Assembly (NCBI GenBank): GCA_016218765.1
Contig: JACRCZ010000147.1
Coordinates: 62,001-126,000, forward strand
Reading direction: 5' to 3'
Source of the DNA: Deltaproteobacteria bacterium
GTDB taxonomy: Bacteria > Myxococcota_A > Polyangia > DRWM01 > JAAZOP01
DNA length: 64,000 nucleotides
Part shown: positions 8,599 through 39,184 of the stretch, one piece after another
Position numbering within the stretch: position 1 is the stretch's first letter
Layout of the letters: every line of letters starts with the position of its first letter
Program-made: the position numbers and the translations under genes
Notes under the pieces: generated by a model
Database searches by the model: none
What the model was told of the DNA's origin: nothing
What the model saw: only the letters and a program-made list of their open reading frames with translations

Positions 8599-8967
8599 AT
8601 GGAGAGCACCCAGGAACGACGGACGCGCATCCGGGTCCCCCTCGAGGTCGAGCTGTGCGAGCAGGCGCATCGCGGGGAGGCGCGCGTGCGGACGCGGAAC
8701 ATCTCCGAGCTGGGCTTGTGCTACGAGAACTCGACGCTGGCGCCGCGCAGGGACGGGGACGAAGTCATCCTCCGGTTCTGTCTGCCGGGGGATCCGCAGC
8801 CGATCCAGGTGTTGGGGGTGATTGCCGACGAGCGGTGTCTGGCGCGGACGAGCGAGACGTGCGTGTCGTTCGTGTGGCCGCGTGCCGCGGACGCGCAGCG
8901 CATCCGCGACTACGTCACGTCCCGCAGCTCCCGCCAGTGCCGCCCCGGCGCGCTTCGCCTGCGCTGA
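8599..8967 (+). CDS. PilZ-domain protein
   Basis: This 122-residue protein is essentially one PilZ domain. It starts with the Arg-rich segment RRTRIRVPLEVEL and continues with TRNISELGL, matching the RxxxR and (D/N)xSxxG elements that bind cyclic di-GMP in the family. It probably acts as a small cytoplasmic c-di-GMP receptor that signals by protein contact; in myxobacteria such proteins influence motility and exopolysaccharide. There is no partner gene beside it. Its last 58 bases overlap the end of the convergent C39-like protease gene on the other strand. Confidence 0.8.
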   Translation: MESTQERRTRIRVPLEVELCEQAHRGEARVRTRNISELGLCYENSTLAPRRDGDEVILRFCLPGDPQPIQVLGVIADERCLARTSETCVSFVWPRAADAQRIRDYVTSRSSRQCRPGALRLR

Positions 8968-10475
8968 CGCCACCGCGCTGCGAGCGCGATCCACGCCAGG
9001 AGGGACAGGTTTCCGTCGGAGCCGCCGGCGGCGCGGCAGTCGCAGCCGGAGCCGCCGGCGATGCCCGGGGGCGCCTGGTATTCGCAGCGGCCGTCGGCGG
9101 TGCACTCGTGCTGGAGCGGGCAGTCGCCGCACGAGCCGCCGCAGCGGTCGTCGCCGCACTCGCGTTCCGCGCAGTCGGGCGGGCACGGGAGGCACCCGGC
9201 CTCGTCGCATCCCCACTCGCACTCGCGGCACGCGGCGCCGTCGGCGACCAGGACGCACCCCGCGGACGGCGTGCAGGTCTCCGACGCGGTCCACGGGCTC
9301 CAGCCGACGTTGTCCTCGGTGCACTCGCCGCCCATCCCGGTGCAGCGTTTCGGACCCTCGCGGCGTTCGATGGTCGCGCCGCAGCTCGCGGAGGTGCACC
9401 GTTCCTGGACCACGGTCTCCTCGCCGCAGGTCGTGTCGGCGGGGAGGAAGCGGCATCCGTCGCAGCACTCGCCCTCCGCGCAGTCGCAGCCGCAGACCGC
9501 GCCGCCGGCGCAGCGTTCCTCGGTCGCGGTGCACGTCTCGGTGTCACCGCAGTCGAGCAGGACCTCCCACGGTTTCCACGGGCCCGGCGCTCCGACGCAG
9601 TCCGCGCTCTCGCCGGGGCACATGCGGTCGCGGGTGCGCACCGCCAGGTCCTGGCCGCAGGCCCGGCCCCACGGACAACCGACCTCGCGGTCCCGATCGA
9701 TCTCGCACGCGTAATCGGGGGGTCGGAACGCGCCCAGCGCGCTGCAGCACGGTCCCGTGGAGCAGTCCGCGCCGCCCGGGACGCTGGTGACGGCGCAGTG
9801 GTTGAAGGCCTCGTCGAAGCCCTTGACGTGCACCGCGTAGTCCCAGGTGTTGTACAGACGCATCGTGCGATCGGCGTCGTCGTAGCCGACGACCAGGACG
9901 ACGTGGTTGCCGCCGCCCTCCGGGTAGTAGCCGTAGTACACCGGCCGCCAGCCGTTGATTTCGGTCACCACGTCGTCTTCCCAGCTCAGCCAGTCGTGGT
10001 CGTAGAACGCGAACGAGTAGCCCAGGTCCGACGTGTACCCCTCGAGCAGGCCGCGGTCCTCGGCGCAGAAGAACCAGAAGAACAGGCCGCTGCTGCTCCC
10101 CTCGCACGAAGCACCGCCGAAACGGTCGAACAGCGCCTGGGTCGCGGCGCGGTAGGCCGCCGGGTCGTCGGCGTCCCCCCCCGGCAGCAGCCGTTCCCAG
10201 GGTCCGCCGCCGCCGTGATCGTAGTCGTCCCAGTAGCCCAGCAGCATCCCCATGCTCGTCGCCCAGCAGGCGCAGTCCGGGCAGGCGTCGTTCCCGGCGC
10301 AGGACGCGCAGCATGCGGACCCCTGCGTGTGCGGCGGCAGGATCTCCGTGATCGTCGTCGAGTCCGCGTCGCGCAGGAAGCGCGGCGCCGCGACCGCGAC
10401 GGCAGCGGAGGACGAGACGAGCAGGGCGACGGCGACGGCACCGGACGCGCGGCGCGTCAAGCGGCCGGCGCTCAC
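8910..10475 (-). CDS. Secreted C39-like cysteine protease with Cys-rich region and MYXO-CTERM-like tail
   Basis: A signal peptide (hydrophobic stretch ending AVAVAAP) precedes a papain-like C39_2 domain, with nucleophile segment ACWATSMGMLLGYW and NHVVLVVGYD holding the His. A long Cys-rich stretch follows, with many CxxxC patterns. The C-terminus has GSGCDCRAAG, a hydrophobic stretch and WRQRRR, which resembles the MYXO-CTERM sorting signal of Myxococcota. Fourteen residues follow the Arg cluster, more than usual, and fall in the overlap with the PilZ gene. The GTG start overlaps the stop of the upstream lipoprotein gene as GTGA, so the two are probably translationally coupled. Confidence 0.75.
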   Translation of the reverse strand: MSAGRLTRRASGAVAVALLVSSSAAVAVAAPRFLRDADSTTITEILPPHTQGSACCASCAGNDACPDCACWATSMGMLLGYWDDYDHGGGGPWERLLPGGDADDPAAYRAATQALFDRFGGASCEGSSSGLFFWFFCAEDRGLLEGYTSDLGYSFAFYDHDWLSWEDDVVTEINGWRPVYYGYYPEGGGNHVVLVVGYDDADRTMRLYNTWDYAVHVKGFDEAFNHCAVTSVPGGADCSTGPCCSALGAFRPPDYACEIDRDREVGCPWGRACGQDLAVRTRDRMCPGESADCVGAPGPWKPWEVLLDCGDTETCTATEERCAGGAVCGCDCAEGECCDGCRFLPADTTCGEETVVQERCTSASCGATIERREGPKRCTGMGGECTEDNVGWSPWTASETCTPSAGCVLVADGAACRECEWGCDEAGCLPCPPDCAERECGDDRCGGSCGDCPLQHECTADGRCEYQAPPGIAGGSGCDCRAAGGSDGNLSLLAWIALAARWRQRRRSAPGRHWRELRDVT

Positions 10476-11458
10476 GGCGTCCCTCCGTCGAACGTCCACG
10501 TCCACAGCGCCGCCTGGGCCCGCACGGCCCCCGCGGGATCGGACGCGTGCCGCACGGCGACGCCGGTCCGCCACGCGTGCAGCGCCTCGGCCGGCTCGAA
10601 CCGCCAGCCAAGCGCCGCCGGCTCGACCCGCCGGCCCGCGTGATGACTGAAGAGGAACGGTCCCGATGGGCCGTCGTAGGCCACGACCTCGACCAGTCCG
10701 CCCGCGTCCCCGGCCGGGTGGATCGCCGTCGGCCGCGTGCGTGGCGCGGGCGCGTCGGCCGGCAGGCGCTCCGGCGTGAGCAGCCAGAACGGCAGTCCCC
10801 CCAGGCCGTCGCGGATCGGGTGCTGGAACGACCAGGCGGAGACGACCAGCGTGAAGAAGTGCGCGGCGCTGCGGCGCGTCCGTTCGCGCAGGACCGGCCC
10901 ATCGACGCGTCCCGCGGCGCCGAGCGCCGTGTCGACGTCGTTCGCGATGCGCCGCGCCTCGGCGGCGAGGTCCGCGTACGAGCGACAGGCGTCGAGATCG
11001 GTGAGCACGTACTCGCGGCCGACGACGTTCCCGCCGCCGTCCAGCCAGGGGAGGGCAAGGCAGACGTGCGCCGGTCCGGCCAATTCACCGCTGCCGTCCA
11101 CCCAGCGCACCGCGTAGCGCTCCGTGACGGCATCGGGCACGGCGAAGCGCCGCAGGACGCCCGGGTCGGCGAGGCGCGACTCCGGGAGCAGGAGGACGTC
11201 GTCGTCGAGCCCGGCGAACGCGGCGCCGAAAGACGCGGAGGACGCGGGGTCGGGCGTCGGGGTGCTCGACGCGGCGCGCGGCCCGTCGGCCCGCAGCGCC
11301 CTTCCGTTTCCGCTCGCGGGCGCTTCTTCCCGAGGGCAGGCGGCGAGGAGAACGACGATCGGGACCGCGATCGCCGCGATCGCGTGGCGTCGATCACGGC
11401 GCCCGCCCCGCAGGCAGGCAGCGGGGCGGCAATCCTCCGGCGCCCTCCGGCCTCGCAT
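10472..11458 (-). CDS. Lipoprotein of unknown function, coupled to the C39-like protease
   Basis: This is a 328-residue protein with a long basic n-region, a hydrophobic segment and lipobox LLAAC, followed by a Ser/Thr/Pro-rich linker and a domain of about 250 residues with only two Cys. I do not recognise the domain. The start is uncertain: the ATG at 11458 has a weak ribosome binding site, and a GTG six bases upstream is equally possible. Its TGA overlaps the GTG of the protease gene, which implies the two proteins are made together and may act on the same surface process. Confidence 0.62.
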   Translation of the reverse strand: MRGRRAPEDCRPAACLRGGRRDRRHAIAAIAVPIVVLLAACPREEAPASGNGRALRADGPRAASSTPTPDPASSASFGAAFAGLDDDVLLLPESRLADPGVLRRFAVPDAVTERYAVRWVDGSGELAGPAHVCLALPWLDGGGNVVGREYVLTDLDACRSYADLAAEARRIANDVDTALGAAGRVDGPVLRERTRRSAAHFFTLVVSAWSFQHPIRDGLGGLPFWLLTPERLPADAPAPRTRPTAIHPAGDAGGLVEVVAYDGPSGPFLFSHHAGRRVEPAALGWRFEPAEALHAWRTGVAVRHASDPAGAVRAQAALWTWTFDGGTP

Positions 11459-11659
11459 CCCTGTCACCGCGCCGTTGCCCACGCGATCCTCCCGCAATGC
11501 GCGAAACGATACCGGCGCCGCGACCGTCCGGCAAGGCCGACTTCGGGTCGACTTCGGTGCGCCTTGTCTCCGTCTTGTCCCCGTTTGACTTCCCTCCTCC
11601 GCTCTTGCGACCATCCCCTGGCGCGGGCGGCGGGGGGAGAGCCGCGCAGGGAGGTGCCG

Positions 11660-12046
11660 ATGCCGACGTGGGGTGAGATCCAGGAATACGCGCGCACGAA
11701 GTACAAGCTGGCCAAGGACGAGGAACACTGGTTCTCGCTCGTGTTCGCCTACGACAACGAGCGCCGGCAGCTCGTCCGGGTCAAGCACTTCAAGGCCTTC
11801 GACCAGGACTGGCTCGACTTCTCCTCGGCGTGCTGCAAGAACGACGAGATGTCCCCCGTGGTGGCGCTGAAGAAGAACAACGACTTTGCCGTCGGCGCCA
11901 TCTGCCTGGACGGCGAGGTCTACGTCTTCAAGTACACCGTCCCGCTCAAGAACCTCGACATCGAGGAGTTCGAGCTGCCGCTGCACGTCGTCGCTTCGAC
12001 CGCGGACCAGCTCGAGGGCCAGTTCGCCGCACAGGACAAGTTCTAG
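11660..12046 (+). CDS. Small protein resembling YbjN/secretion-chaperone folds; related to C-terminal domain of the facing caspase-like protein
   Basis: The 128-residue protein starts at an ATG with a good AGGGAGGTGCCG site. It has no signal peptide or membrane segment. Predicted order by eye is one helix, several strands and a C-terminal helix (LPLHVVASTADQLEGQF), as in YbjN or CesT-type chaperones; this is a fold-level impression. EEHWFS near residue 21 and VASTADQLEG at the end parallel EEPHWVS and VATLADRLEG of the protein encoded at 12106-13266, 60 bases away and convergent. It may therefore be a free copy of that effector's regulatory domain. Function is otherwise unknown. Confidence 0.6.
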   Translation: MPTWGEIQEYARTKYKLAKDEEHWFSLVFAYDNERRQLVRVKHFKAFDQDWLDFSSACCKNDEMSPVVALKKNNDFAVGAICLDGEVYVFKYTVPLKNLDIEEFELPLHVVASTADQLEGQFAAQDKF

Positions 12047-12083
12047 GCCGAGCGGTCGAGCGGCCGAGCGGTCGAGCGGTCGC
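12047..12083. repeat. GAGCGGTC/GAGCGGCC tandem repeat between convergent genes
   Basis: Four degenerate eight-base units of the type CGAGCGGT fill the short space between the convergent small protein and caspase-like genes. The complement (GCTCGACCGCTCG) recurs at 24974-25076. No U-tract terminator is visible. Confidence 0.7.
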
Positions 12084-12105
12084 GGGGCCGGGCGCCCGGG
12101 CCGGC

Positions 12106-13266
12106 TTACGCGCGGTCGATGCCGAAGATGCGGCCCTCCAACCGATCGGCCAGGGTGGCGACCTGGAAGACGAGGGCCGCGAGGTCCTGATCGCGCACGC
12201 GCGCGATCGGCAGGAAGCCCTGCACGACGATCCGCGGCATGTCCGTGCCGCTCTTGACCAGCGCGACGCGCGCGTAACCCGGCCCGCCGAAGCCCCCCAA
12301 CAGCGCCTGCGGCTCGACCACCGCCGTGAGCTCCCCGACGTCGGACTCCGCCCCCAGCATCGGCTCGCCCTCGCAGTACGGCTCCGCGGACTCGACGACG
12401 AAGACCTTCACGCCCTGCCAGCGCTTCTCCGCCAGCGGCACGTCCACGCTCACCCAGTGCGGCTCCTCTCTCGTCTTCGCCCCGAGCATCTCGACCACGG
12501 TCCGCAGCCGGTCCGGCACGTTCCCCAGCCGCCCGGACTCCGCCGCGTCCGCCACCGGCGCGTAGGCCACGCCGGCGTCCCCCGGGACCGGCGTGTCCGC
12601 CAGGATGTAGCGCCGGATCAGATCGTCCAGATCCGTCTCCGTGTCCGCGCGGCTCTGGAGGAACTCGACCGCGCGGTCGATCGTCACCGGACGGCCCCAG
12701 CCGACGACCAGCGGCCTGCCGCCCAGCGCCCCGCGCCACTTGCGCGAGCGCGACCCGACGTAGCACGAGGCGAACACCACCAGCCGCAGGCCGGGCGACA
12801 CCCTCGCCGGATCGAGGTCCTCGGGCACGACGTGGCCGCCGTCGCAGGTCTCGACCGAGCCGTCCTCGCCACCGTGGGCGCTCCAGTAGACGCCCGCCGG
12901 GACGAGCCCCCGGACTCCCTCCCCTTCGCCGGCGACCGCGTCGAGGAAGTCCTGACGCGTGGCCTGCGGATCGACGACCACCTTGTAGCCGGCGTTGCGC
13001 AGCACCTCGACGTCGTCGCCGAGCTGTTCCGTCTCGCGCTGCAGGAACCCCTGGTCGCGGTCGCTGTGGATCTTGAACCCGAACAGGAAGAGGAACGACT
13101 TCCCGGTGCCGATGCCCTGCCCCGACGGCTCGTGGACGACCCGCCTGGTCGGATCGTCGGTCCTCGCGCCTGCCGTCCACACCTTCGGTCCGGGGCGACC
13201 CTCCTTCCCCTTCGCCGCCCAGGCCGCCGGCAGCTTCACCTCGGGCTTGCCCTGATCGTCCGCCAT
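12106..13266 (-). CDS. Caspase-like (clan CD) protein with C-terminal YbjN-like domain
   Basis: The 386-residue protein starts at an ATG with a very strong GGAGGAGGAGGC site. Residues 55-205 follow the caspase/CHAT pattern: a strand near FLFLFGF, a helix and strand with VLRNAGYKVVV and ATRQDFLDAV, then GVYWSAHGG with His131, and LRLVVFASCYVG with Cys168, a plausible catalytic dyad. Residues 255-386 form a second domain that parallels the small facing protein (EEPHWVS, VATLADRLEG). There is no signal peptide. In the family, caspase-like enzymes cleave proteins in regulated proteolysis, cell death or anti-phage defence. The role here is inferred. Confidence 0.62.
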   Translation of the reverse strand: MADDQGKPEVKLPAAWAAKGKEGRPGPKVWTAGARTDDPTRRVVHEPSGQGIGTGKSFLFLFGFKIHSDRDQGFLQRETEQLGDDVEVLRNAGYKVVVDPQATRQDFLDAVAGEGEGVRGLVPAGVYWSAHGGEDGSVETCDGGHVVPEDLDPARVSPGLRLVVFASCYVGSRSRKWRGALGGRPLVVGWGRPVTIDRAVEFLQSRADTETDLDDLIRRYILADTPVPGDAGVAYAPVADAAESGRLGNVPDRLRTVVEMLGAKTREEPHWVSVDVPLAEKRWQGVKVFVVESAEPYCEGEPMLGAESDVGELTAVVEPQALLGGFGGPGYARVALVKSGTDMPRIVVQGFLPIARVRDQDLAALVFQVATLADRLEGRIFGIDRA

Positions 13267-38567: not shown

Positions 38568-38957
38568 CTACGGCGGCGCGTGCAACTCGACCCAGCCGAG
38601 CCGGGCCATCCGATCAAAGTCCCCGTCCAGCGACCACAGCGGCCAGCCACGCTCCGCGGCCAGCGACGCGATCAGCAGGTCTGCGAAACCGAAACGCTCT
38701 CCTCGGGCGGTCGCCACCTCCAGCCAGGCATCGATGCGCGACCAGGTGGCTGCCGTGGGATACGCGATGGGCAGCGCCCCCAGCAGGCGGCGCAGCCGAG
38801 GGAAGTCCGCCCGTGACGCGCCCGAGAGGATTTCGACGCGAACGGGTGCCGGCAGGGCGACCGCGTCCGCATCCAGCAGCTCGCGGTGACGCTCCGCCGT
38901 CCGCCGATCGCGCCCGCGGAAGAAAGCGATCCACACCGAGGTATCGACGGCGATCAC
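38568..38957 (-). CDS. vapC: VapC-type PIN-domain ribonuclease toxin
   Basis: The 129-residue PIN domain has the acidic residues of the family in AVDTSVW, VRVEILSG, FADLLIAS and SLDGDFDRM, so the catalytic quartet is complete. VapC toxins cleave RNA, often initiator tRNA or rRNA, until VapB binds them. The GTG start overlaps the TGA of the antitoxin gene as GTGA, the usual coupling of such modules. It is translated after the antitoxin. Confidence 0.88.
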   Translation of the reverse strand: MIAVDTSVWIAFFRGRDRRTAERHRELLDADAVALPAPVRVEILSGASRADFPRLRRLLGALPIAYPTAATWSRIDAWLEVATARGERFGFADLLIASLAAERGWPLWSLDGDFDRMARLGWVELHAPP

Positions 38958-39184
38958 GCAGTCCGCCCCCGCCCGCGCGCCGGTCCCGCTCGCGGTCGAC
39001 GGCGCGAACGCGGGACGTCGATGTCCAGCTCGATGGCGCCGAGCAGCCCCATCAGCTCCTCCACGCGGCGACGCCGGACCAACTCGCGCAGCGAGACGAT
39101 CACCGCGTCGGTCTTGGACTTGAATCCCAGGACCCGCCGGGCCTCCTCCATCAACTCGTCCGGAATGTCGAGGGTCGTGCGCAT
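38954..39184 (-). CDS. vapB: VapB-type antitoxin
   Basis: The 76-residue protein begins MRTTLDIPDELMEEARRVLG, a ribbon-helix-helix DNA-binding N-terminus, and has a basic, flexible C-terminus that would wrap the toxin. In such modules the antitoxin also represses its own promoter. The ATG at 39184 is preferred to an upstream in-frame start that gives a non-homologous extension. It is co-translated with vapC. Confidence 0.88.
   Translation of the reverse strand: MRTTLDIPDELMEEARRVLGFKSKTDAVIVSLRELVRRRRVEELMGLLGAIELDIDVPRSRRRPRAGPARGRGRTA

What the first reader, a model, noticed from the sequence alone, without database searches (positions are those of the whole stretch)
11660..13266. Caspase-like protein faces a small protein that resembles its own C-terminal domain
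The 386-residue protein has a plausible clan CD dyad (His131 in SAHGG, Cys168 in FASCYVG). Its last 130 residues share EEPHWVS and VATLADRLEG with EEHWFS and VASTADQLEG of the 128-residue protein encoded 60 bases away on the other strand. Both have the helix-strand-strand-helix feel of YbjN/CesT-type chaperones. A protease joined to a regulatory domain, with a free copy of that domain beside it, would make a simple two-part control system: the free copy could compete for or inhibit the effector, or load it. I know of no described pair with this design.
Basis: partly seen in the sequence, partly recalled or inferred. Interest (0 to 1): 0.78.

Follow-up and report, generated by a model that had tools for sequence, protein, structure and literature searches.

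The report
Caspase-like protease with matching partner protein
Some bacteria carry a caspase-like protease whose tail is a chaperone-shaped domain, with a gene for a free, related copy of that domain close by in every typical case seen, so the two very probably work together as a protease and its partner, a pairing I did not find described.

Summary
The 386-residue protein has a CHAT/caspase-type fold (SAVED-CHAT, Z 12.1) with an invariant His131/Cys168 dyad. Its last ~137 residues and the 128-residue neighbour are both predicted in the class I type III chaperone/YbjN ("TY-chaperone") fold, with the same order of elements. BLAST and shallow profiles were weak; deep profiles show homology (hhalign probability 94%; none of 300 shuffles close). 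The pair is conserved: 24 of 24 typical copies (16 Myxococcota, 8 Micromonosporaceae) have the small gene within 4 kb, convergent in 11, same-strand with the small gene first in 13; in 7 of 8 actinobacteria the genes overlap as TGATG. The small protein also occurs without the protease (57 of 317 genomes). Two genomes with intact pairs show no FlhA/SctV protein, so a type III effector-chaperone pair is unlikely. Best reading: a two-gene regulated protease whose TY domain pairs with a free TY partner that restrains, stabilises or licenses it. Binding, activity and direction of control are inferred. The papers searched do not describe this pair; nearest designs are EACC1/EACC2-caspase and TY-Chap systems.

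The parts
11660..12046 (+). Small partner gene, 128 aa, TY-chaperone (class I T3S chaperone/YbjN) fold, pI 4.9
12106..13266 (-). Protease gene, 386 aa
12580..13119 (-). CHAT/caspase-like domain, about residues 50-229
   Evidence: Z 12.1 to SAVED-CHAT 8tl0, about 9.5 to legumain, 8.6 to Dronc; by Foldseek alone weak, Dronc E 0.025
12874..12876 (-). His131 codon, presumed catalytic
   Evidence: 24 of 24 covering sequences; lies after strand 122-129
12763..12765 (-). Cys168 codon, presumed nucleophile
   Evidence: 25 of 25 sequences; lies after strand 162-166
12115..12525 (-). C-terminal TY-chaperone-like domain, residues 248-384, homologous to the small protein
12047..12105 (.). 59-base gap between the two convergent stops, G+C-rich repeats

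Best explanation
The two genes make one two-part protease. The large protein is a CHAT/caspase-type cysteine protease carrying a TY-chaperone-like domain at its C-terminus; the small protein is a free relative of that domain. Proteins of this fold usually work as dimers (recalled), so the free copy most likely pairs with the fused domain in a heterodimer. In that complex the small protein stabilises the protease and holds it inactive (or substrate-less) until a cellular signal changes the complex, after which the protease cuts cellular proteins. Shown here: both folds (predicted), homology of the two domains, conserved dyad, and near-obligate gene linkage including overlapping genes. Inferred: heterodimer, restraint rather than activation, protease activity, signal and substrates.
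For: Same fold and homology. An intermediate sequence: the C-terminal domain of the one-gene relative L086 (genome G263) matches the small-protein profile directly, E 1.6e-5 over residues 380-479. Linkage: 24 of 24 typical proteases have the small gene within 4 kb, kept through two different arrangements and, for example in G002, G008 and G017, across one to three intervening genes. In 7 of 8 Micromonosporaceae pairs the small gene's stop overlaps the protease's start as TGATG, small gene first. Asymmetry: 57 of the 73 genomes with the small protein (317 searched) have no protease hit, while no typical protease was seen without the small protein. The one broken protease copy (G384) has no small gene in the 12.5 kb fetched around it. 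Heterodimers in this fold exist: the SycN-YscB structure 1xkp is among the matches.
Against: No binding or activity test was possible. The small protein is widespread without the protease, in contexts that differ between families, so it has, or had, a function of its own. In G263 a divergent relative has the caspase and C-terminal domains but no small protein was found, so the partner is not needed in every form. The linked distance trees (r 0.83-0.84) are what shared descent alone would give. Part of the C-terminal domain, including its middle helix, is modelled with low confidence (blocks 311-330 at pLDDT 56-63). The fold also serves as a peptide-binding chaperone, which would not need a fused copy. 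Linkage alone does not tell restraint from activation or substrate delivery.
Confidence: 0.5

Rival explanations
1. Substrate adaptor: the fused TY domain and the free copy together form a peptide-binding receptor that brings chosen proteins to the protease. The small protein is then an activator or specificity factor, not a brake.
For: Several solved members of this fold are complexes with a client protein, by their titles, e.g. 5wez, 4g6t, 4gf3. Lone small proteins in genomes without the protease suggest clients of their own.
Against: No partner gene recurs across families beside the lone small proteins looked at (22 of the 23 lone copies fetched); within family f15 a 510-555-aa gene and a kinase-like gene recur, with or without the protease. 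Small-gene-first order with overlap is equally expected of a brake or a folding chaperone.
Confidence: 0.25
2. Dedicated folding chaperone: the small protein only helps the protease fold or stay soluble, with no role in control.
For: Acidic 15-kDa class I chaperone-like protein (pI 4.4-4.9 in 17 of 17) coded next to its presumed client; the small-gene-first order fits.
Against: A folding chaperone does not explain why the client carries a homologous copy of the chaperone's own fold.
Confidence: 0.15
3. Type III secretion effector with its class I chaperone.
For: Size, pI, fold and gene adjacency are those of class I chaperones. All 16 paired Myxococcota genomes, the window's included, have an FlhA/SctV-family protein (PF00771).
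Against: Background in the class is 254 of 306. Two genomes with an intact pair (G317, Micromonospora; G424) have no PF00771 match, though gaps in their assemblies were not checked. The other six actinobacterial genomes with an intact pair have one, which I take to be flagellar FlhA (inference). The chaperone fold is inside the putative effector. Five genus g21 genomes with the lone small protein (G024, G032, G167, G170, G173) are among those without a match.
Confidence: 0.06
4. Two unrelated genes that happen to be neighbours.
For: The small protein occurs widely without the protease.
Against: 24 of 24 linkage over two phyla and two gene orders, with one-base overlap in 7.
Confidence: 0.02

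Closest known systems
TY-chaperone superfamily (class I type III chaperones such as CesT, SycE, ExsC; YbjN/AmyR; TY-Chap1-3)
   Same: Fold of the small protein (Z up to 12.8) and of the protease's C-terminal domain (Z up to 12.4); 8q8o is among the top three of both lists. TY-Chap2, with two copies of the domain in one protein, is described in ARG-centred conflict systems (PMC9503650, passages seen).
   Different: No Pfam model reaches its cut-off for the window's two proteins; in 13 relatives of the small protein the best CesT_Tir_1 E-value is 0.0019. One copy is fused to a protease and the other is free. Whether ARG-type genes lie nearby was not searched.
CHAT/caspase (clan CD) proteases, e.g. 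SAVED-CHAT, orthocaspases
   Same: Fold and His/Cys dyad.
   Different: Pfam Peptidase_C14 matches 1 of 17 relatives, 13 bits against a cut-off of 21.4; no SAVED or TPR domain among the Pfam matches of the 17; TY-chaperone-like tail instead.
EACC1-caspase and TRADD-N/EACC2-caspase two-gene conflict systems
   Same: Two genes, a caspase-type protease plus a small non-catalytic partner (PMC7159879 section 33 and PMC8195603 passages).
   Different: EACC1 is defined by a membrane helix and EACC1 caspases by variable C-terminal effectors; here the partner is modelled as a soluble alpha/beta protein and the C-terminal domain is constant and homologous to it.
PADLOC phage-defence candidate PDC-M13
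   Same: The small protein resembles both PDC-M13A (10 of 17 relatives, best 7.2e-6) and PDC-M13B (9 of 17, best 1.9e-6).
   Different: Weak, partial matches; the protease matches nothing in PADLOC at E 0.1 (0 of 17).

Membership tests
TY-chaperone (class I T3S chaperone/YbjN) fold | Helix-strands-helix-two strands-helix fold over the whole domain | tested here: met
   Small: H4-14 E16-20 E24-30 E36-46 E49-60 H66-73 E80-84 E87-95 H105-122, pLDDT 90.7, Z 12.8 to 3kxy. C-terminal domain: the same nine elements between 250 and 381, the middle helix in a low-confidence stretch, Z 12.4 to 8q8o.
Pfam CesT_Tir_1 / YbjN | Score above the curated cut-off | tested here: not met
   18.6 bits against 27 for the small protein; YbjN 15.7 against 22 for the Micromonospora copy.
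Class I type III secretion chaperones | Serves a type III secretion system | tested here: inconclusive
   Intact pair in G317 and G424 without a PF00771 match, which speaks against a general requirement; the window's genome does have PF00771, and secretion itself was not tested.
CHAT/caspase clan CD protease | Caspase-type fold with His and Cys at the ends of adjacent strands | tested here: met
   Z 12.1 to SAVED-CHAT, 153 residues, rmsd 3.0; dyad invariant. Foldseek alone ranks a caspase (Dronc) at E 0.025.
CHAT/caspase clan CD protease | Cuts peptide bonds | not testable with these tools
   Needs a biochemical assay.
EACC1-caspase two-gene system | 5' gene with one conserved membrane helix | tested here: not met
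   The small protein is modelled as an alpha/beta fold throughout; no membrane-helix predictor was run; definition from PMC7159879 section 33.
PDC-M13 defence candidate | Both PDC-M13A and PDC-M13B present | tested here: inconclusive
   One small protein weakly matches both models; the protease matches neither.
Toxin-antitoxin system | Protease toxic alone, neutralised by the small protein | not testable with these tools
   Only gene order, overlap and asymmetric presence fit.

The most novel reading that the evidence does not exclude
A new class of bacterial regulated proteolysis: a CHAT/caspase protease governed by homotypic pairing of a fused and a free TY-chaperone domain, so that a chaperone-type dimer interface has become the on/off switch of a suicide or signalling protease, shared as a unit by Myxococcota and Micromonosporaceae.
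Probability: 0.4. Interest if true: 0.78.

Novelty: new variant of a known kind. Interest (0 to 1): 0.62.

Why it matters
Bacterial caspase relatives are common, but how they are kept in check is known for few (recalled). Here the candidate regulator is coded close to the protease, is a relative of the protease's own domain, and is small enough to express and mix with it, so the control question can be tested directly. It would also show a type III chaperone-like fold working outside secretion, as a protease control module, and gives an evolutionary path: a chaperone-like gene copied onto a protease while the free copy stays as partner.

Tried and rejected
Type III effector-chaperone reading: tested with PF00771 in the paired genomes and in 306 genomes of the class; not supported as a general explanation. 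Promiscuous effector-associated domain: a class-wide search with the C-terminal domain found 20 of 317 genomes; 16 are the typical protease, G263 the divergent caspase form, G237 a caspase-free protein (plus a second, marginal match, E 9.9e-4, not examined), G184 and G185 weak matches to 144-aa proteins; no other enzyme fused to it was seen. Mobile carriage: no match in plasmid or phage records or in viral contigs. Lone small proteins sharing another partner: 22 of 23 fetched lone copies were looked at (L096 had no genes called); neighbours differ from family to family. Sequence match to a solved structure: none of note. SHOCT-like reading (by eye) of the helical N-terminal segment of some proteases: Pfam did not list SHOCT; best was DMAP_binding, 1.5e-5, just under cut-off. 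Tree of 47 small proteins: paired and lone copies are intermixed, 8 label changes, 11 of 44 inner branches well supported, so repeated loss of the protease is suggested, not shown. Mirror-tree r 0.83-0.84 does not discriminate. Promoter scan found nothing; one terminator-like site where shuffles give 0.5 on average. Gene neighbourhoods rest on a simple codon-usage caller written here, not on curated annotation.

Full report
What is there. The small gene is 11660-12046 (+), 128 aa; the large gene is 12106-13266 (-), 386 aa; they converge with 59 bases between stops. The flanks look ordinary: genes like nadA, larE and bioB on one side and secreted proteins on the other (read from sequence). The protease has no match in plasmid, phage or viral collections.

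Fold of the small protein. AlphaFold2 on 17 sequences gave pLDDT 90.7. Foldseek and VIA-align place it with class I type III chaperones and YbjN-family proteins: ExsC 3kxy Z 12.8, VecA 9uwz 12.7, 8q8o 12.7, CesT 5z38 12.4, YbjN 6vu7 10.4. By sequence, Pfam CesT_Tir_1 is under its cut-off (E 0.0019).

Fold of the large protein. pLDDT is 80.6 overall, about 35-56 in the first 40 residues and 56-63 in residues 311-330. Residues about 50-229 match CHAT/caspase proteases by VIA-align (SAVED-CHAT 8tl0 Z 12.1, 153 residues, 3.0 A; legumain about 9.5; Dronc 8.6), although in the Foldseek list the best caspase row is Dronc at E 0.025. Residues 248-384 match the TY-chaperone group (8q8o Z 12.4, 2plg 10.8, SycN-YscB chain 1xkp 10.2, YbjN 8.7). 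The C-terminal domain and the small protein have the same nine elements in the same order. His131 is kept in 24 of 24 rows that reach it and Cys168 in 25 of 25; Trp190 and Gly191 are kept in 25 of 25 and Arg192 in 24 of 25. From recall, caspases place a Trp-Arg pair in a comparable loop after the fifth strand, so Arg192 may shape specificity; this is only a lead.

Are the two domains related by descent? BLASTP: E 0.021 and 0.025. Profile against profile: 27.6% with 8 and 13 rows; 2.1% when the whole protease was used; 94.4%, P 8.9e-8, 120 columns, with 28 of 29 C-terminal domains (the decayed G384 row left out) and 47 small proteins. Control: 300 column shuffles of the small-protein alignment give at most 20.8 against 46.6, reversed 9.0, caspase part against small 10.1; with the last helix removed from both 44%, score 27.2. 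The C-terminal domain of the G263 relative matches the small-protein profile at E 1.6e-5, bridging the two. I conclude that they are homologous, with the strongest signal in the last helix (AD.LE...D motif).

Gene survey. Protease profile: 18 of 317 genomes of the class. Of these, 16 are typical (one cut by a contig end, G008); G237 is a 254-aa protein with the C-terminal domain and no caspase; G263 is a divergent 480-aa form with a weak Tudor-like N-terminus. Small protein: 73 of 317 at E 1e-6, including all 16 typical protease genomes, each on the same contig as the protease and within 4 kb. Micromonosporaceae: 9 of 200 genomes; 8 intact, 8 of 8 with the small gene directly upstream (7 with TGATG overlap, the eighth with a gap of about 300 bases by the start called here), and one decayed copy (G384) without a small gene nearby. 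The search flagged a TGA inside the G424 and G513 matches, but the reading frames called there, 377 and 356 aa, are open and cover the family profile. A wider actinobacterial sample gave only the centre genome itself, 1 of 256, and a phylum-wide sample 2 of 126, both already known. In total 24 of 24 typical copies are paired: 11 convergent, 13 same-strand with the small gene first. In several genomes one to three genes lie between the partners, for example G002, G008, G017 and G183, yet they stay within 4 kb.

The other direction. 57 of the 73 genomes with the small protein have no protease hit. Many are draft genomes, and one lone copy, in G164, lies at a contig end, so some may be missed. 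Neighbours of the lone copies vary between families. The tree mixes lone and paired copies.

Secretion test. All 16 paired Myxococcota genomes have PF00771, but so do 254 of 306 in the class. Of the 8 intact actinobacterial pairs, 6 genomes have it and 2 (G317, G424) do not. The pair therefore does not seem to depend on type III secretion.

Mechanism. Shown: domain anatomy (predicted), homology, dyad conservation, linkage. Inferred: since proteins of this fold dimerise (recalled; the heterodimer SycN-YscB is among the structural matches), the free copy pairs with the fused one. Small-gene-first order, one-base overlap and the one-way dependence (no typical protease seen without the partner, partner often without protease) are what a dangerous protease with a co-made restraint would show, but a folding chaperone or substrate adaptor is not excluded. 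I put about 0.5 on the restraint/stabiliser form, 0.25 on an adaptor and 0.15 on folding only.

What is known. PMC7159879 (section 33 and passages read) describes EACC1-caspase gene pairs and effector-associated domains; PMC8195603 (passages) describes the homotypic recruitment principle and the TRADD-N/EACC2-caspase pair; PMC9503650 (passages) describes TY-Chap families in ARG-centred systems, one with two domain copies; PMC3501461 (passages) surveys prokaryotic caspase homologues, and its text holds 'YbjN' 0 times. PMC5398634 (AmyR/YbjN structure) was seen only in a search listing. Searches listed no paper that I could see to describe a caspase with a TY-chaperone partner; only openly licensed full texts are held and I read passages, not whole papers, so a description elsewhere is possible. 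The small protein weakly matches both PDC-M13 models of PADLOC; of the five papers listed for the PDC/PADLOC terms I read passages of one, PMC13356809, which gives the abundance of PDC-M13 only.

Noticed in passing
L086:5969-7411 (-), genome G263: One-gene relative: Tudor-like N-terminus, caspase-type domain with the dyad kept, and a C-terminal domain that also matches the small-protein profile; no free small protein found in that genome at E 1e-6.
   Followed up: partly
L085:6136-6900 (-), genome G237: The C-terminal domain with a short helical-looking N-terminal segment and no caspase domain.
   Followed up: partly
L070:9764-9895 (+), L075:9692-9814 (+), L085:6769-6888 (-): A short motif of the type 'L..L...+.GKLT.FE...R+.AL' recurs at the N-terminus of some proteases and of the caspase-free relative; Pfam gives only DMAP_binding/GvpG-type matches below cut-off.
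   Followed up: partly
L134:5821-6288 (+), genome G384: Decayed protease copy in fragments; no small gene found in the 12.5 kb fetched around it.
   Followed up: partly
L074, L080-L082, L097, L037: In family f15 a ~510-555-aa gene and a Ser/Thr-kinase-like gene (by eye) stand near the small gene, with or without the protease.
   Followed up: partly
L049:6187-6558 (+) and 10705-12282 (-), genome G038: A genome with four divergent small-protein relatives; one lies some 4 kb from a secreted-looking protein with weak clan CD (Peptidase_C25/C13) similarity.
   Followed up: no
window 38568-39184 (-): Looks like a VapBC-type toxin-antitoxin pair (PIN-like protein and a small ribbon-helix-helix-like partner), judged by eye.
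   Followed up: no
window 8910-10475 (-): Secreted-looking, Cys-rich protein that resembles a C39-type peptidase followed by Cys-rich repeats, judged by eye.
   Followed up: no
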